Assembly: GCF_000993805.1 (NCBI RefSeq)
Contig: NZ_CP009961.1
Span: forward strand, 1,512,453-1,576,452
Direction: 5' to 3'
Length of the DNA stretch: 64,000 nucleotides
From: Thermofilum uzonense
Lineage (GTDB): Archaea; Thermoproteota; Thermoprotei; Thermofilales; Thermofilaceae
Position 1 is the stretch's first letter. Each line of letters begins with the position of its first letter. Made by a program: the position numbers and the translations under genes. The notes beneath the pieces were generated by a model. The model had not been told where the DNA came from. It was given only the letters and a program-made list of their open reading frames with translations, and did no database searches. Positions 582 through 16,051 of the stretch are shown here, piece by piece.

Positions 582-674
582 GCCGGGGTCGCCTAGCCTG
601 GTCTAGGGCGCCGGACTCATAATCAACCGGGATGAGCTATCCGGTCTTCCCGGGTTCGAATCCCGGCCCCGGCA
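582..674 (+). tRNA. tRNA-Met (CAT), elongator type, with a 17-nt canonical intron
   Basis: The acceptor stem GCCGGGG/CCCCGGC ends in A73, and the T loop is TTCGAAT. The anticodon stem is CCGGA/TCCGG with anticodon CAT at 618-620. An intron at 622-638 lies at the usual 37/38 position. CTCA of the loop pairs with TGAG in the intron, with TAA and CTA as the three-base bulges, giving a bulge-helix-bulge. The mature length would be 76 nt. GCCGGGG with a CAT anticodon fits elongator Met better than initiator, but a tRNA-Ile2 with a modified C34 cannot be excluded from sequence alone. Confidence 0.93.
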
Positions 675-769
675 CTATATCCTACTAGCCGGTCTCTCGT
701 TCATCGATTTCCTAGTGCCTCGTGTGTGGCAAAAAATTTTTGAGTGAAACCCTTACTAATACGTGTGGT

Positions 770-4140: not shown

Positions 4141-6522
4141 CTAGGCAAAGTCGAATAGAGAGGACTGTTTCTTACCCTTATAGAAGTGTTCCTCCTTTAT
4201 GCCGAAATATTCCAGGATGCGTAAAGCTGCAGGTATAATCTGGCGTTTAGTATAGTATTCTGTGTCAACATCGCTGAGCGATTTCAGCATGAAGAAGGGA
4301 AGAGCCTTCTCAGAGACTTTCTCCCCGCCCTTAACCACGATATAGCCTATCTTAGACCCCTTGCCCACCCGCCAACCCTGACTGGCCATAATCTTGGCAG
4401 CCCTTACGTGTGGCGCGTCTACCTCGTATTCGTCAAGGCTTTTAGAAAGCGTCTTCCATATGACTAGCTTCTGTGCGGGAATCTTGTTTGCCTCCAAGTC
4501 TGCAATGACCTTTCTCACATAGTCCACAGCCTTCCAGGGATCTCCTTCCTTCAGGACGATCTCTATGACCTTTTCTTGAATCTCCTTGGATATCTCTGCC
4601 CAGTCACCCCTAACCGCTTCAAGCCCGACAACATCTATCCTACCATCCTGTAAAAGCCCACAATACCTCTTCTTCGCCTCTGTGAAGAATACTTTGACAT
4701 AGACCTTATCTACCTTTATCTCAAAGCCGAGGTTTTTCTCCACATAGTCAACGAGTTCCTGAACCTTCTTGGGATCATTTTCCAGGAAAAGAGAGTCCGT
4801 GTCACCGTAGATCACGTGGAGGCCGAGACCCTTAGCGCGTGACAGGGTGGTCTTTATAAGCTCTCTACCCCAGGCCGTCGTGGACTCTGCAACCTCCCTC
4901 ATATACCACCTTGCAACGCTCCAACCGCTATACCCATAGGTAGCGTTAGTGACAACCTTTATGGCCTTTTGTCTCTCGTCAAGCAGTCTGAAGGTATCGC
5001 TGTCAGGGTCGAGCTTCTTCATCTGTTCCCTGATCTTTCGCCTTGCCTCTAGTAGATCTTCCAGTACCTTTGAGTAAAACCCCTTTGGACTCTTCCTGAA
5101 CCTGTGACCGACTCCCGGGGCTATATTAACTTCTTCTGGATCAACCTCGAGGTCTGGAGGAACATAGGTATCAGGCGACACGTTGTACTTGATCATTATA
5201 TTAGGGTACATAGATGAGAAGTCCAAAACAGCTATGTTCTCGTGTATGCCGGGCTCAGGCTTAAGGACAATAGCGCCAGCGTAGGTTTCAAGGGGCCTCT
5301 CCTTACTGTTCGGCACCAGTTCATTAAAAGAATATGCTTTGCGGATAAGGTGCCACTCCACGCGGTTACCGACTGAAGCCGCAAAGACCTGGTCCAATGG
5401 GAGCCCTACAAGGCTTGAAAGTTGGATGGCAAAAGGTAAAACTGCCTCGGCAAGCCTGTATGTGCTTAACGCATCATCCCTATTATAGCGCCTTAGAACG
5501 TCACGCTGGGACGGGTTATCCCAATACTGATAGACTAGCATCGGGTCTATTAGCGTCCTCTCCTCTTTCTTTACCAGCCCGAGATAATCGACAATATTCT
5601 CCAAGGTCTTCATCTTGACCTCAGGGATTTCGCTGGCGTAGTCGTAGAGGTCCATGTTAGCACGCCCAACTATGCTGTAGTGTCCGTAAACGCTTTGGGC
5701 AGGCTCGCCAGTACTTCTAGCTATATCCAGCTTTACCCCGTTTTTACGGGCGCGCGTCAGAATATACGGCCAGTCAAACCTATTGCTATTATACCCGACG
5801 ATTACGTCCGGATCCTCCTCTAAGAGATCATCTACGAACTCTCTAATCAGCCTAGAATCATTCTTGTCCTCTGCTTCGAATGTCTCTATGCCATTCCTCG
5901 TCGCCCTACTTATCAAGACAATGTTGTCTCTCTCGGGATCCGGTTCTCCAAACTTGTTATAGCATTCTATGTCGAAGGCATACACTTTTAGACCAGGAAG
6001 TCTCTGTTCCTCTACGGGCTCCGGAGGCGTCACAGCCTCGAATACACGGTCTACCCGCCATACACGTGGTTTCTCAGCCTCCTTCACCTTTACACTGTGC
6101 CAGGCGCTGGGCCTGACATCATTGTCAACCATGTACCTCATGTAGAACCTGATGTCGGCCTCTAGAACCTCCTTTACACCCTTGGCTTTCGCAGCGGCTT
6201 CACGCGCTTCTGGAACACTTCGAGGATCCGACAAGGTTATCTTGACGACCTCGACCGGTTTACCGAAGTACTTCTTTTCTACTCTCTCTAAAGATAACAC
6301 TTTTATCTTGGAAAGACTCGTTTGGAGAGACCTCAGCAGCTCATCGGTTATTTTCTCGCCGGCCGGCAGCACGTAGAAATACGGGCGGAAACTCTTGTCG
6401 ATGACAACTATCCTCTCGCCAGCCTCGCTAATACCCCACAATCTAACCTCCGGTACCCCGTTAACCACATCATAGCTAACGTCGAGAAGCCAAAAGACTT
6501 CCTCAGACACGACCATCTTCAA
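4141..6522 (-). CDS. Family B DNA polymerase
   Basis: The protein has 793 residues, normal for archaeal PolB. The exonuclease motifs are present: ExoI FDIECYN at 183-189 (Asp184, Glu186), ExoII VGYNSNRFDWPYI near 242, and ExoIII YNRDDALSTY near 348. The polymerase motifs are also intact: A, DFSSMYPNIMIKYNVSPDT, near 435; B, KVVTNATYGYSG, near 520; C, YGDTDSLF, near 573. It should be a proofreading replicative or repair polymerase. The motif C form YGDTDSLF resembles the PolB3 group, but assigning it to B1, B2 or B3 needs a tree. Confidence 0.95.
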   Translation of the reverse strand: MKMVVSEEVFWLLDVSYDVVNGVPEVRLWGISEAGERIVVIDKSFRPYFYVLPAGEKITDELLRSLQTSLSKIKVLSLERVEKKYFGKPVEVVKITLSDPRSVPEAREAAAKAKGVKEVLEADIRFYMRYMVDNDVRPSAWHSVKVKEAEKPRVWRVDRVFEAVTPPEPVEEQRLPGLKVYAFDIECYNKFGEPDPERDNIVLISRATRNGIETFEAEDKNDSRLIREFVDDLLEEDPDVIVGYNSNRFDWPYILTRARKNGVKLDIARSTGEPAQSVYGHYSIVGRANMDLYDYASEIPEVKMKTLENIVDYLGLVKKEERTLIDPMLVYQYWDNPSQRDVLRRYNRDDALSTYRLAEAVLPFAIQLSSLVGLPLDQVFAASVGNRVEWHLIRKAYSFNELVPNSKERPLETYAGAIVLKPEPGIHENIAVLDFSSMYPNIMIKYNVSPDTYVPPDLEVDPEEVNIAPGVGHRFRKSPKGFYSKVLEDLLEARRKIREQMKKLDPDSDTFRLLDERQKAIKVVTNATYGYSGWSVARWYMREVAESTTAWGRELIKTTLSRAKGLGLHVIYGDTDSLFLENDPKKVQELVDYVEKNLGFEIKVDKVYVKVFFTEAKKRYCGLLQDGRIDVVGLEAVRGDWAEISKEIQEKVIEIVLKEGDPWKAVDYVRKVIADLEANKIPAQKLVIWKTLSKSLDEYEVDAPHVRAAKIMASQGWRVGKGSKIGYIVVKGGEKVSEKALPFFMLKSLSDVDTEYYTKRQIIPAALRILEYFGIKEEHFYKGKKQSSLFDFA

Positions 6523-11338: not shown

Positions 11339-11965
11339 TTATTCTGGAGGAGGTATCGAGCCTTTAAGGAGGTCTACATGTTCATCTGTTAGTAGACACT
11401 CCCTGTATGTGGCTAAGCTCGTTTTGCCCTCTGAAAGCTTTACTCTGTGGAACAGGAATTTCTTGTTTGGTATGTCTGCTGTGAAGACCCTGATCTCAGG
11501 CAACTGCTCCAAGTATTTTTTAAGATCTTCGTGTGACAGTACAGTGGATAGTTGTTTTGTCGCCAGCCATACCCGCACGTGAATAGCTAGTACTCCCTTG
11601 AATCTCGCCTTTGCTAGGGCTTTAAGGGTCTCTATGGTGGCTTCATTGACCGTGCTTAGCTTCTGCTCCCCACCGTATGAGATATATACTGCCTCGAATT
11701 TTTCCTCGACTATCTCTTTTGCTATCTCCTCAATTCTCTCCTTCTCGTAGGTAAAAACTACGCCTATTCCATCTCTATATCCCGTAACATATGTGAAGGA
11801 TGTTAGTGCGGATGCGGCCATGGCGGCGCATATTCTGTCGGGATACGTTAGAACGGCTACCCTCTTGAGCCCATCGAAGAGATGTTCTCCAACGAGTCTT
11901 CCTGTAAGTGAGCGGAGGTATAATTCCTTATACAGTGGCAGGAGAGATGCTGTTTTTGAAGCCAT
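11339..11965 (-). CDS. Conserved hypothetical protein, alpha/beta fold
   Basis: The protein has 208 residues from the ATG at 11965. An AT-rich box A-like element lies about 25 bases upstream (around 11990), which would give a leaderless transcript; a TTG at 12019 would lie upstream of this element. The sequence alternates strands and helices (VAVLTYPDRICAAMAASAL, IGVVFTYEKERIEEIAKEI, EAVYISYGG) in a Rossmann-like order reminiscent of DHH-type phosphoesterases, but no DHH or metal motif is present. I cannot assign a function. It sits between the two RNase P protein genes on the opposite strand. Confidence 0.65.
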   Translation of the reverse strand: MASKTASLLPLYKELYLRSLTGRLVGEHLFDGLKRVAVLTYPDRICAAMAASALTSFTYVTGYRDGIGVVFTYEKERIEEIAKEIVEEKFEAVYISYGGEQKLSTVNEATIETLKALAKARFKGVLAIHVRVWLATKQLSTVLSHEDLKKYLEQLPEIRVFTADIPNKKFLFHRVKLSEGKTSLATYRECLLTDEHVDLLKGSIPPPE

Positions 11966-12175
11966 GTTTTGAATTATATCTTGAAGGAATTTATTTCTTT
12001 TCCTAAACGGTTCTAACAATATCTCTTACCCATTTTTTCGATTATTTAAACCATCGTGTAAACCAGACGCTGTAAGTGTTTCATTCCCTGCTACTCTAAG
12101 TATCCTTAGTAGATCTCTTCCAGGTGAAAAATATTTTAGGAGCTGAATCTACGGCTTAATTACTGTTGCCCTGGT

Positions 12176-12547: not shown

Positions 12548-13444
12548 ATGAATGAGTTGATAGTGTTAGGCGGTTCTACATGTACAGCCATCGGACTCGA
12601 GGTCTCGAGAATACTGGGAGTAGAGTTTCAGCCAGTGATTACCCGTGAGTTTCCCGACGGAGAGCTCTATGTAAGGGTTCCGTTAGGTGTTAGTGGGAAA
12701 AGAGTTTTCCTCGTCGAGTGTGCTGGGAGAAGGCCTAACTCAGCCTTAGTTGAGAGTGTCCTGACGGTGAAGACTCTTCTCAAGAAGGGGGCTCGTGAAG
12801 TTGTACTGGCCCTGCCGTACTTCCCTTATGCGCGGCAGGATGAGGAGTTCAATCCCGGGGAAGCCGAGAGCCTGAGGATCGTGGCAGAAATGCTGGAGGG
12901 GCTTGGGGTTTCAGGCATTGTTACGGTAGATATGCACCTTCACAGGTTTAAGAGTATGGAGCAGGTCTTTCACATCAAAGCAGTCAATGTGACTGCCATG
13001 AACGAACTCGCAAGTTATCTCTCCCAAAGATATAGTGATTTTTCCCTGGTCGTCGGTCCTGATGAAGAGGCTGAACAGTGGGCTAGGGTTTTTTCAGAAA
13101 AGGTTAACGCGCCGTACATAGTTCTAAGGAAAGAGAGAAGGGGTGATGAGGACGTCGAGGTCAGAGGAGGTCTCCCGTATAAAGGCAGAGTAGTTATAGT
13201 TGACGACATTATTAGTACTGGCTCTACCATTGCAGAGACAGCCTCGAATATAAAAGCTATGGGAGCGGGCGAAATACTTGTTGCCTGTACGCACGGTCTT
13301 TTCGTGAGCGGTGCGGAGTCAAAGATATTTGCCTCCGGTGTACAAGATATTATATCCACGAACAGCGTTCCTAACCCATTTGCCCGCGTTAGTGTAGCTC
13401 CGGCTTTAGCCGCCGGCTTAAAAAGGGTGATGGGTGATGAGTAA
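12548..13444 (+). CDS. prs: Ribose-phosphate pyrophosphokinase (PRPP synthetase)
   Basis: The protein has 298 residues. It makes PRPP from ribose 5-phosphate and ATP. Visible motifs are FPDGELYVRV, the ATP/Mg region LPYFPYARQDEEF, VDMHLHRF, the flexible-loop region, and the PRPP-binding loop VIVDDIISTGSTIAET at about 217-232. It is shorter than bacterial class I enzymes, as in other archaea. The stop overlaps the next gene start, tying PRPP supply to the eIF2B-like and R15P isomerase genes, which act on ribose 1,5-bisphosphate and related metabolites. Confidence 0.95.
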   Translation: MNELIVLGGSTCTAIGLEVSRILGVEFQPVITREFPDGELYVRVPLGVSGKRVFLVECAGRRPNSALVESVLTVKTLLKKGAREVVLALPYFPYARQDEEFNPGEAESLRIVAEMLEGLGVSGIVTVDMHLHRFKSMEQVFHIKAVNVTAMNELASYLSQRYSDFSLVVGPDEEAEQWARVFSEKVNAPYIVLRKERRGDEDVEVRGGLPYKGRVVIVDDIISTGSTIAETASNIKAMGAGEILVACTHGLFVSGAESKIFASGVQDIISTNSVPNPFARVSVAPALAAGLKRVMGDE

Positions 13445-14402
13445 GATCGATTACTCGGAGGTTATTGAAAGCATAAGGTCGGGACGAATTCATAGTTCTT
13501 CCGAGGTGGTTATCTTCGCCTTGAATAAGATGGTTGACGTTCTTGAGTCCGAGAAAAAGCTCAGCAGTTTTGCTAATTTTGCACTTAAAGTTGTGAAATC
13601 GCGTCCCACGTCTGCTTTGCTAGTGAACGCTACACGGGAACTTGCACAAGTAATACTGAAGAACAAGGAAAGCAGCATTGAGGAGATATTGGAGCTTTCC
13701 AGAAGGAAGGTGGAAGAGTTAAAGGGGCGTATTCATGACTCTGTTGAATCTTCCGCCGCGATAGCCGAGAAGAGAATCGAGTCGGGTGACACCCTGCTTA
13801 CAACTTCTTACAGTATTTTCGTGAAGAGAACCCTTGAAAACGCGGTTAAAAAGGGGAAAGATTTAAAGGTGGTTGTAACCGAGTCGCGGCCCGGTAGCGA
13901 GGGATTCAGAATGGCTTCAGAGCTTGTCTCACTGGGCTTAGACGTTACTCTAATCGTTGACTCGGCGGTCAGGTTTGTAATGAAAAATGTTGACAAGGTT
14001 TTTCTTTCTTCTGAGAGCGTCACCGCTAATGGAGCGAATGTTACAAAGGTGGGCTCCAGTCAGATTGCGCTCGCAGCCCACGAGGCTCGAGTCAGAGTGT
14101 TCGTGGTGACGTCAACTTTGAAGTTTAGCCCTGAAACACTTGTCGGCGAACTCGTGGAGATACCTGAAGCTGATACCAGTGAAATGCGGGAAATGTTGCT
14201 AAAGAAAGGGTTGGATAAGGTAAAGATAAGGGCCCCTCTATTTGACGTCACACCACCCGAGTATATAGACGCGATCATAACTGAGAAGGGCCTTGTAGCG
14301 CCATCCTTTGCTATAATGACTGTTCGCGACCTTTACGGGTGGCCTCCTAAACCTCCTCTTCTTGAAGAGACTCTCATGGAATTGGCACGGGTTGACAGAT
14401 GA
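13437..14402 (+). CDS. eIF2B-alpha/beta/delta-like protein with altered active-site residues
   Basis: The protein has 321 residues of the IF-2B/R15P-isomerase family, with the conserved C-terminal Rossmann region (VTESRPGSEGFRMA, LIVDSAVRFVM, ESVTANGA, GSSQIALAAHEARV, FDVTPPEYIDAIITEKG). In alignment with the next gene, the catalytic Cys of the isomerase is replaced by Ser124 (LTTSYS) and the catalytic Asp by Glu193 (SSESV). It is therefore unlikely to be an R15P isomerase. It may be an eIF2B-like nucleotide sensor, or a non-catalytic partner of the neighbouring isomerase. It overlaps prs by 8 bases and ends inside the ATG of the next gene. Confidence 0.85.
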   Translation: MSKIDYSEVIESIRSGRIHSSSEVVIFALNKMVDVLESEKKLSSFANFALKVVKSRPTSALLVNATRELAQVILKNKESSIEEILELSRRKVEELKGRIHDSVESSAAIAEKRIESGDTLLTTSYSIFVKRTLENAVKKGKDLKVVVTESRPGSEGFRMASELVSLGLDVTLIVDSAVRFVMKNVDKVFLSSESVTANGANVTKVGSSQIALAAHEARVRVFVVTSTLKFSPETLVGELVEIPEADTSEMREMLLKKGLDKVKIRAPLFDVTPPEYIDAIITEKGLVAPSFAIMTVRDLYGWPPKPPLLEETLMELARVDR

Positions 14403-15385
14403 TGGAGCGAGCTCTCCCTGAGGAGGTTGTCGAGATAGCGCGTGACATAAAGGATATGAGGATACGGGGCGCTGGGAGGATTGCGAGAGCCGCGGCTCGG
14501 GCTCTCAGCATGGCCGTGGAGAAATATTCTGGGGACGACTTGGAAGACTTTAGGAGGTACATCGGGTTCGTTGCTGAGTATCTTGTAAAGACTCGTCCCA
14601 CGGCTGTCTCGCTTCCGAACGCGGTAAGCTTTGTGGTGAATCCCTTCTTTAAGGCTCGGGATTTGAAAAGCGTGCAGGAGGCGAGGAGAATGCTTTTAGA
14701 ACGTGCCTCAGCATTCATAAAATATTCGGAGGATGCTCTCGAGAGAATAGCCGAGATCGGGAGCAGGTTGGTACAGGACGGAGATAACATTCTTACGCAT
14801 TGTAACAGCGAGGCTGTTGCCTCTATCATCCGGCGTGCGATTCGTGAGGGAAAAAACATTAAGGTGTTTGCCACGGAGACCCGTCCCTTGTATCAGGGAC
14901 ATATCACTGCCAGGATGCTTCTCGATGCTGGCGCGGATATAACTCTAATACCGGACTCAAGCATTAGAAGCATTATTCGTAGAATTGACAAGGTCATAGT
15001 GGGTGCTGATACTGTGACAGCTAACGGTGCAGTTGTCAACAAGATTGGCACGAGCCTTATAGCTTTGATAGCTCACGAAAGGAGGACTGACTTCTATGTG
15101 GCAACTGAGACCTACAAGTTCAGCCCCTACACGGTCTGGGGCGAGCCAGTAGTTATAGAAGAGAGGGCTCCAACAGAAGTAGCATCTCAAGAGTTTCTAG
15201 ACAAGCATCCCAAGTTAAAAATACTTAACCCCTCTTTTGACGTCACGCCATCAAGTTACATAACAGGGATAATCACGGAGATAGGTCTAATACCGCCGAA
15301 CGCTGCCCTTCTCGTGCTAGAGGAAGTATACGGGCGTGAGGCTGGACACGAGCCGATCCAAGGATTAGATGAGGGGGAGGTTTAA
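14399..15385 (+). CDS. Ribose-1,5-bisphosphate isomerase
   Basis: The protein has 328 residues. It keeps the catalytic pair of the family: Cys135 in ILTHCNSEA and Asp204 in VGADTVTANG, close to Cys133 and Asp202 of the Thermococcus enzyme. Other motifs are TETRPLYQGHITARML, NKIGTSLIALIAHE, and ETYKFSPYTVWG. It converts ribose 1,5-bisphosphate to ribulose 1,5-bisphosphate in the archaeal AMP degradation route that ends at type III RuBisCO. AMP phosphorylase and RuBisCO are not in the window. It overlaps the preceding paralogue by 4 bases (ATGATG/TGA). Confidence 0.9.
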   Translation: MMERALPEEVVEIARDIKDMRIRGAGRIARAAARALSMAVEKYSGDDLEDFRRYIGFVAEYLVKTRPTAVSLPNAVSFVVNPFFKARDLKSVQEARRMLLERASAFIKYSEDALERIAEIGSRLVQDGDNILTHCNSEAVASIIRRAIREGKNIKVFATETRPLYQGHITARMLLDAGADITLIPDSSIRSIIRRIDKVIVGADTVTANGAVVNKIGTSLIALIAHERRTDFYVATETYKFSPYTVWGEPVVIEERAPTEVASQEFLDKHPKLKILNPSFDVTPSSYITGIITEIGLIPPNAALLVLEEVYGREAGHEPIQGLDEGEV

Positions 15386-15433: not shown

Positions 15434-16051
15434 ATGGTTGGTGGATCCCCTAAAATTACAACGATCTCATGGAGCGAACTATTCAGTGACACCTTAGAGT
15501 TGGCTAAGAGAATTATTTCAAGCGGCTTTATCCCTGAAAGACTTATCGTTGTTGTGAGGGGAGGATTAGTCGTCGGACGGATTCTCTCAGATCTCCTGCA
15601 AGTTAAAGAGCTCGTAAACCTTCCGGTCTCCTTTTACAAGGGTGTCGGAACCACTCGGGACAAACCCGTAATCTCAGCAGATATAGATGAGAGTATAATT
15701 AAGGGTAGGAGTGTACTGATAGTCGACGACATTGTCGACACGGGTGAAACCTTGAAAGCTGTCCTGGCCTATGTCGAGAGTCTTAAACCCAGAATTGTTA
15801 GGAGTGCTGCCCCGTATGTCAAGCCCTGGGCTAACCCCTTCCCGGATTACTACGTTAAAATCGTAGAGGACTGGGTGGTTTTTCCTTATGAACTCCGGGA
15901 AACAATGGAAACCCTCCCGGCTAACACCGCTGAAAATTTGGGGCTGGATGAAAAGACTCTAGAGGAGATAAAAACACTTATCGGCATGTTCAACGCCGAA
16001 AAAGAGGGGACGTCTAGAGAACCTCAAGGGAATACCAATGGATTACTCTAA
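15434..16051 (+). CDS. Phosphoribosyltransferase, Gpt-like
   Basis: The protein has 205 residues. The PRPP loop is VLIVDDIVDTGETLKAVL at about 93-110, preceded by VVVRGGLVVGRILSDLL. The pattern and the C-terminal YVKIVEDWVVFPYEL match archaeal xanthine/guanine (Gpt-like) phosphoribosyltransferases for purine salvage. Substrate choice (guanine, xanthine or hypoxanthine) cannot be read from the sequence. It lies 48 bases after the R15P isomerase, and its last 14 bases overlap the GINS gene. Co-location with prs fits a nucleotide-salvage role. Confidence 0.85.
   Translation: MVGGSPKITTISWSELFSDTLELAKRIISSGFIPERLIVVVRGGLVVGRILSDLLQVKELVNLPVSFYKGVGTTRDKPVISADIDESIIKGRSVLIVDDIVDTGETLKAVLAYVESLKPRIVRSAAPYVKPWANPFPDYYVKIVEDWVVFPYELRETMETLPANTAENLGLDEKTLEEIKTLIGMFNAEKEGTSREPQGNTNGLL

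What the first reader, a model, noticed from the sequence alone, without database searches (positions are those of the whole stretch)
13437..15385. eIF2B-like protein that lost the R15P isomerase residues, next to the intact isomerase
Seen: the tandem paralogues differ at the catalytic pair (Cys135/Asp204 in the second, Ser124/Glu193 in the first), and they overlap by 4 bases. Known: Cys and Asp are essential in Thermococcus R15P isomerase, and eIF2B-type relatives bind nucleotides or sugar phosphates without catalysis. Inference: the first protein may regulate or hetero-oligomerise with the second, linking PRPP/AMP status to the AMP pathway.
Basis: partly seen in the sequence, partly recalled or inferred. 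Interest (0 to 1): 0.6.

Follow-up and report, generated by a model that had tools for sequence, protein, structure and literature searches.

The report
Enzyme split into catalytic, AMP-sensing subunits
Next to the enzyme that feeds nucleotide sugar into archaeal RuBisCO sits a catalytically dead sister protein that has kept the enzyme's AMP-binding residues while the enzyme itself has often lost them, which suggests that the two form one complex with a working half and an AMP-sensing half.

Summary
Window 13437-14402 (A) and 14399-15385 (B) are tandem paralogues, 38% identical, overlapping by 4 bp; B has Cys135/Asp204, A has Ser124/Glu193. B passes the curated ribose-1,5-bisphosphate (R15P) isomerase model; A does not. 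The genome also carries AMP phosphorylase and form III RuBisCO.

A is not local decay. It is a conserved family: 55 distinct A-then-B pairs across Thermofilales, Desulfurococcales and relatives, plus divergently transcribed pairs in Asgard archaea. None of 60 A proteins has the catalytic Cys; most lost the 1-phosphate contacts. Yet the AMP-site residues mapped in Pyrococcus R15P isomerase (R124, R229, D290) are intact in 54 of 55. B shows the reverse: catalytic residues are kept, while 38 of 66 A-paired B proteins lost that AMP half-site but kept the AMP residues donated by other protomers (N209 in 36/38). Of 101 unpaired isomerases 17 are damaged, nearly all one presumed haloarchaeal clade that also lost N209.

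Best explanation: a hetero-oligomeric R15P isomerase with catalytic B and regulatory, AMP-sensing A. Complex formation and AMP binding are inferred, not measured. I found no published description. Pocket and tree also link A to eIF2B-alpha, unresolved.

The parts
12548..13444 (+). Ribose-phosphate diphosphokinase (PRPP synthetase), upstream gene overlapping A by 8 bp
   Evidence: TIGR01251 229.8 bits over cut-off 113; overlap
13437..14402 (+). A: non-catalytic paralogue of R15P isomerase (proposed AMP-sensing regulatory subunit)
   Evidence: PF01008 205.7 bits; TIGR00511 226.6 bits, below cut-off 314.1; AF2 model pLDDT 87, best PDB match R15P isomerase 5yft, TM 0.83
13773..13775 (+). A Arg113 (= PH0208 Arg124, AMP contact), retained
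   Evidence: Invariant in alignment A1; residue table
13806..13808 (+). A Ser124 (replaces catalytic Cys135)
13899..13901 (+). A Glu155 (replaces Gln166, 1-phosphate contact)
14013..14015 (+). A Glu193 (replaces catalytic Asp204)
14088..14096 (+). A Arg218-Val-Arg220 (= PH0208 Arg229 and Trp231 positions, AMP phosphate contacts), Arg at both
   Evidence: Invariant in A1; 55/55 representatives
14268..14270 (+). A Asp278 (= PH0208 Asp290, AMP ribose contact), retained
   Evidence: Invariant in A1; 55/55
14399..15385 (+). B: R15P isomerase, catalytic subunit
   Evidence: TIGR00511 379.9 bits over cut-off 314.1; all catalytic and substrate residues present
14768..14770 (+). B Leu124 (PH0208 Arg124, AMP contact, lost)
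14801..14803 (+). B catalytic Cys135
15008..15010 (+). B catalytic Asp204
15263..15265 (+). B Thr289 (PH0208 Asp290, AMP contact, lost)

Best explanation
A and B are the two subunits of a hetero-oligomeric R15P isomerase of the AMP degradation (pentose bisphosphate) pathway: AMP phosphorylase makes R15P, B isomerises it to RuBP, and form III RuBisCO uses the RuBP. B is the catalytic subunit. A is a catalytically dead paralogue that supplies the AMP-binding half-site (Arg124, Arg229, residue 231 and Asp290 in PH0208 numbering) at the interface between protomers, so AMP acts on the enzyme through A. In single-gene isomerases such as Pyrococcus PH0208 one polypeptide does both jobs in a homohexamer. 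Shown by sequence: loss of catalytic residues in A, retention of its AMP residues, the opposite pattern in many B proteins, conserved gene pairing, presence of the pathway. Inferred: the physical complex, AMP binding by A, and AMP activation. A's old active-site pocket keeps the 5-phosphate and sugar contacts but not the 1-phosphate contacts, so it may bind a sugar monophosphate as a second input (weaker inference).
For: (1) A lost catalysis: Cys135 absent in 60/60 A proteins; Gln166 absent in 55/55 representatives and Arg22 in 52/55. Cys135Ser in PH0208 is inactive (PMC5789824). (2) A kept the AMP site: Arg124, Arg229 and Asp290 all intact in 54/55 representatives, among the most conserved columns. 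(3) 38/66 paired B proteins, all with intact catalytic residues, lost part of the Arg124/Arg229/Asp290 half-site; N209, donated by another protomer, is kept in 36/38. In the 17 damaged unpaired isomerases (of 101) N209 is kept in 1/17. (4) A scan of 298 columns for excess change in paired B ranks Arg229 second, Arg124 seventh, Asp290 twenty-first; Ala188 and Ile184, close in sequence to AMP contact Arg190, are also near the top. (5) 55 distinct A-then-B gene pairs on one strand; three order members lack both genes. (6) Replicated in Asgard archaea: B proteins beside an A-like gene have Leu/Met124, and those without one have Arg124. (7) L103, a B with a damaged half-site and no adjacent A, was checked for an A elsewhere in its genome; it has one. 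(8) AMP phosphorylase and RuBisCO III in the genome; RuBisCO beside A-B in several relatives.
Against: No biochemical data and no multimer model. In Desulfurococcaceae and other lineages B keeps the whole AMP half-site although A is present (28/66), so dependence on A is not universal. AMP-site damage also occurs without A in a presumed haloarchaeal clade and three other Halobacteriota. A's presence changes few times on the tree, so an independent-pairs test has too few pairs, and the branch-length test gives only p 0.017 and 0.025 for positions 124 and 229 and 0.13 for 290. Conservation at these positions in A could reflect oligomer packing and not AMP binding. B has an Arg at the neighbouring position 123, which might partly substitute for Arg124.
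Confidence: 0.64

Rival explanations
1. A and B form a hetero-oligomer, but A is only a structural partner; the conserved 'AMP site' residues in A are kept for subunit packing, and AMP control is altered or absent.
For: The AMP site lies at a three-protomer interface, and Arg229 also contacts Glu287/Tyr288 of a neighbour (PMC5789824). In paired B the columns that change most include Ala188, Ile184, Ala236 and Thr238 as well as AMP residues.
Against: Arg124 and Asp290 are described as moving to meet the AMP ribose and are kept together in A in 54/55; paired B selectively keeps N209 (36/38).
Confidence: 0.17
2. A is an archaeal counterpart of eIF2B-alpha that senses sugar phosphates and acts on translation initiation (aIF2), not on B.
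For: A's pocket resembles human eIF2B-alpha (Tyr130, Glu198, Asn208, Lys234; PMC8187479): Tyr at 136 in 41/55, Glu at 204 in 45/55, Asn at 214 in 33/55, Lys at 240 in 55/55. A groups with Asgard A-like proteins and eIF2B-alpha, 97/100 support, apart from catalytic isomerases. An R15P isomerase homologue is a hub of initiation factor interactions in Haloferax (PMC8576121). aIF2-beta lies downstream in the window.
Against: A keeps the R15P isomerase AMP site that eIF2B-alpha lacks, was not found without B except at contig ends, and sits beside RuBisCO in several genomes. eIF2B-alpha's place is unresolved (AU p 0.23 for leaving it out; very long branch). The window protein has Thr203 where eIF2B-alpha has Asn208.
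Confidence: 0.1
3. A is an active isomerase with another substrate, using Ser/Glu chemistry.
For: The 5-phosphate contact residues and Lys215 are kept, so a ligand pocket persists.
Against: The Cys position holds Ser, Thr, Ala or Gly across the family; Cys135Ser and Asp204Asn both abolish activity in PH0208.
Confidence: 0.05
4. A is a relict duplicate without a specific role, kept by linkage.
For: It lost catalytic residues.
Against: It persists as an intact reading frame in 24/27 genomes of the order and in distant families with dozens of invariant residues.
Confidence: 0.02

Closest known systems
Archaeal R15P isomerase (TIGR00511; PH0208 of Pyrococcus horikoshii, TK0185 of Thermococcus kodakarensis)
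   Same: Fold (TM 0.83), 38% identity of A to the catalytic paralogue, AMP-site residues, AMP degradation pathway setting
   Different: Known enzymes are homohexamers of one polypeptide holding both catalytic and AMP sites; here the two sets of residues are divided between two paralogues
eIF2B-alpha, regulatory subunit of eukaryotic eIF2B
   Same: Non-catalytic relative of the isomerase; Ala/Ser-Tyr-Ser and Gly-Ala-Glu type pocket motifs; 1-phosphate contacts lost
   Different: eIF2B-alpha lacks the AMP-site residues (Phe, Asn, Pro, Thr at 124, 229, 231, 290), and no catalytic eIF2B gamma/epsilon link is proposed for A
Paired catalytic/regulatory enzymes from gene duplication (HisG-HisZ, NAD isocitrate dehydrogenase, PRPP synthetase with its associated proteins; from general knowledge)
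   Same: One paralogue keeps catalysis, the other has a regulatory role
   Different: Not described, in the literature I could search, for R15P isomerase
Methylthioribose-1-phosphate isomerase (MtnA)
   Same: Same superfamily; one separate MtnA-like copy in this genome (G000:C1:50108-50974)
   Different: Lacks the AMP-site residues and groups outside

Membership tests
R15P isomerase (TIGR00511), protein B | Score above the curated cut-off | tested here: met
   379.9 bits against 314.1
R15P isomerase (TIGR00511), protein B | Catalytic Cys135 and Asp204 and phosphate contacts Arg22, Arg65, Gln166, Lys215, Ser137, Lys240 | tested here: met
   All present
R15P isomerase (TIGR00511), protein B | Intact AMP-binding half-site Arg124, Arg229, Asp290 (described as conserved in R15P isomerases, PMC5789824) | tested here: not met
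   Leu124, Arg229, Thr at 290 in the window's B; this is a regulatory feature, so B is still filed as an R15P isomerase
R15P isomerase (TIGR00511), protein A | Score above the curated cut-off | tested here: not met
   226.6 bits against 314.1
R15P isomerase (TIGR00511), protein A | Catalytic Cys and Asp | tested here: not met
   Ser124 and Glu193; Cys absent in 60/60
R15P isomerase (TIGR00511), protein A | AMP-binding residues | tested here: met
   Arg113, Arg218, Arg220 (Trp in PH0208), Asp278, Asn198, Arg179, Lys183
IF-2B superfamily (PF01008) | Pfam gathering score | tested here: met
   A 205.7 and B 299.8 bits, cut-off 22.4
eIF2B-alpha | Sugar-phosphate pocket residues Tyr130, Glu198, Asn208, Lys234 | tested here: inconclusive
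   Tyr125, Glu193, Lys229 present in A; Thr203 in place of Asn (33 of 55 representatives have Asn)
eIF2B-alpha | Common descent apart from catalytic isomerases | tested here: inconclusive
   Clade 97/100 with A and Asgard A-like proteins, but leaving eIF2B-alpha out is not rejected, p 0.23
eIF2B-alpha | Binding to eIF2/aIF2 | not testable with these tools
   Needs pull-down
Heteromeric catalytic/regulatory enzyme | Physical complex of the two subunits | not testable with these tools
   No multimer predictor offered; only gene pairing and complementary residue loss

The most novel reading that the evidence does not exclude
The non-catalytic A lineage (Thermoproteota A plus Asgard A-like) is the source of eukaryotic eIF2B-alpha: the regulatory core of eIF2B would descend from the regulatory subunit of an archaeal hetero-oligomeric R15P isomerase that already had a dead, sugar-phosphate-binding pocket. 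The evidence does not exclude this: A, Asgard A-like and human eIF2B-alpha fall in one clade (97/100) and share pocket motifs, but eIF2B-alpha has a very long branch and its membership is not statistically required.
Probability: 0.15. Interest if true: 0.88.

Novelty: new variant of a known kind. Interest (0 to 1): 0.64.

Why it matters
R15P isomerase is a key step by which archaea route AMP into RuBisCO, and AMP is reported to activate the Thermococcales enzyme. A natural split into a catalytic and an AMP-sensing polypeptide would show which residues do each job, would mean that annotating or assaying B alone misses the regulation, and would give a heteromeric isomerase in archaea as a model for how the homohexameric sugar-phosphate enzyme could turn into the heterohexameric regulatory core of eIF2B.

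Tried and rejected
PRPP sensing: rejected as unsupported, since PRPP synthetase also neighbours unpaired isomerases. 'AMP-site loss happens only with A': first seen as 0 of 62 unpaired against 39 of 67 paired, then corrected after fetching 40 more Halobacteriota, where a presumed haloarchaeal clade lost R229 and N209 without A. Independent-pairs sign test: too few pairs. A dimer or hexamer salt-bridge signature separating A from B: none clear. A structure prediction was also run for B; no PDB search was made with it.

Full report
What is there. The window belongs to a complete 1.61 Mb archaeal genome in one contig whose relatives include named Thermofilum and Thermofilales assemblies. PRPP synthetase (12548-13444), A (13437-14402) and B (14399-15385) overlap head to tail; a phosphoribosyltransferase (15434-16051) follows, then a Gins51-like gene and aIF2-beta. 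A third PF01008 gene elsewhere in the genome is MtnA-like; no others were found. The genome has an AMP phosphorylase over the curated cut-off (C1:181636-183123) and a form III RuBisCO (C1:713188-714471), so B's substrate source and product sink are both present.

The finding's residues. B carries every substrate and catalytic residue mapped in Pyrococcus PH0208 (PMC5789824): Arg22, Arg65, Gln166, Lys215 for the 1-phosphate, Ser137 and Lys240 for the 5-phosphate, and Cys135, Asp204, Asn214. A keeps Arg65, Lys215, Ser137 and Lys240 equivalents but has Ser for Cys135, Glu for Asp204, Glu for Gln166 and His for Arg22. Cys135Ser and Asp204Asn mutants of PH0208 are inactive but still bind substrate. 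A scores 226.6 bits on TIGR00511 (cut-off 314.1) and B 379.9. The AlphaFold2 model of A (pLDDT 87.2) matches R15P isomerase 5yft best, TM 0.83.

A is a family. A and B lie side by side in 15 of 17 genomes of the family; in the order 24 of 27 genomes have A, 23 of them with B and the last with A at a contig end, while the other three have neither. The wider phylum search found more families with the pair, and named matches include Zestosphaera, Desulfurococcales and a Sulfolobales MAG. I counted 55 distinct A-then-B pairs on one strand; in G030 and G392, and in the genome of L103, A and B are apart. In the genomes examined A was seen without B only where A sits at a contig end.

Complementary loss. 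I aligned A, B and PH0208 and read the AMP-site residues (PMC5789824): Arg124, Arg229, Trp231 and Asp290 from one protomer, Asn209 and Val251 from a second, Arg190 and Lys194 from a third. Across 55 A representatives Arg229, Asp290 and Arg at 231 are 55/55, Arg124 and Arg190 54/55, and Asn209 52/55, against a median modal fraction of 0.49 for all columns. None of 60 A proteins keeps Cys135. I took 66 B proteins with an A partner, selected for intact catalytic residues; 38 have lost at least one of Arg124, Arg229, Asp290, and of these 36 keep Asn209 and 33 keep Arg190. The window's own B has Leu124 and Thr at 290, with Arg229 kept. In 101 unpaired isomerases chosen in the same way 17 are damaged, and only 1 of those keeps Asn209. 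Most of these form one clade in the phylum of Methanocellales, presumably haloarchaea; the assay mixture described for a haloarchaeal R15P isomerase lists no AMP (PMC9700705). So when AMP control is lost outright both faces of the site decay, whereas with A present only the face that A could supply decays. That is what a shared site in a hetero-oligomer predicts.

Unbiased and replicated checks. With AMP columns left out of the tree, 298 columns were ranked for excess change in paired B relative to unpaired B: Arg229 is second, Arg124 seventh, Asp290 twenty-first; two of the four one-protomer contacts fall in the top ten (hypergeometric p 0.006). Branch-length tests of loss events give p 0.017 (position 124), 0.025 (229) and 0.13 (290), modest because A's presence changes few times on the tree; the independent-pairs test lacked power. 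In Asgard archaea several genomes carry an A-like gene divergently transcribed from B. Those A-like proteins have Gln166Glu and Asp204Glu, lack Arg22, mostly still have Cys135, and keep the AMP residues, while their B partners have Leu or Met124; Asgard B without an A-like gene has Arg124. L103, a lone B with a damaged half-site, turned out to have an A elsewhere in its genome.

Tree. In the careful tree A, Asgard A-like proteins and two odd archaeal paralogues form a clade with human eIF2B-alpha, 97/100 support, apart from catalytic isomerases. Leaving eIF2B-alpha out is not rejected (p 0.23). A's pocket resembles eIF2B-alpha's sugar-phosphate pocket (PMC8187479), but eIF2B-alpha lacks the AMP site.

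Pathway context. RuBisCO lies beside A-B in several relatives (L076, G036/L079, L093, G007, G015, G016). In unpaired lineages AMP phosphorylase, RuBisCO, the isomerase and PRPP synthetase form one cluster (L178, L179).

Mechanism, with status. Shown by sequence: division of catalytic and AMP residues between two conserved, paired paralogues in an organism with the pathway. Inferred: physical complex; AMP binding at A-containing interfaces; AMP activation of B through A. AMP activation of the Thermococcales enzyme is reported in PMC5789824 citing earlier work I could not read. Speculative: sugar-monophosphate binding in A's old pocket, suggested by loss of the 1-phosphate contacts and retention of the 5-phosphate contacts.

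Novelty. Searches of the open-access library found no description of a two-subunit R15P isomerase or of this paralogue; subscription papers were not searchable. I rate it a new variant of a known kind.

Noticed in passing
L096 5860-6807 with 4751-5743; also L238, L244-L248: Asgard archaea carry divergently transcribed A-like and B genes; most A-like copies keep Cys135 but lost Arg22 and have Gln166Glu and Asp204Glu, a possible intermediate stage.
   Followed up: partly
L312 (G703:C1:56517-57428): A second R15P isomerase copy in one Halobacteriota genome has Ser at 135 and Cys at 22 while its sister copy L321 is intact: apparently an independent, younger pseudo-copy.
   Followed up: no
L194, L222, L226: A separate divergent PF01008 group in families f39/f44 has Gly for the Cys and no Asp at 204; it was the only match above threshold in those genomes.
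   Followed up: no
L061 (G017:C151:714-1655): A third IF-2B paralogue in one order member groups with the Asgard A-like proteins, although that genome also has a normal A-B pair.
   Followed up: no
L085-L095, L101, L166: A proteins of Desulfurococcales relatives mostly keep Asp204 with Cys135 replaced by Ser, and their B proteins keep the whole AMP half-site.
   Followed up: partly
L295-L308: A clade of large-genome Halobacteriota isomerases has Gly or Asp at 229 and Asp at 209 without any A partner, suggesting AMP-independent enzymes.
   Followed up: partly
window 582-675 and 770-863: Two tRNA predictions of 94 bases each, one with a four-base anticodon, probably intron-containing tRNAs misread by the program.
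   Followed up: no
window 11339-12019 (-): A 226-aa ORF with no Pfam or NCBIfam match lies between two RNase P subunit genes.
   Followed up: no
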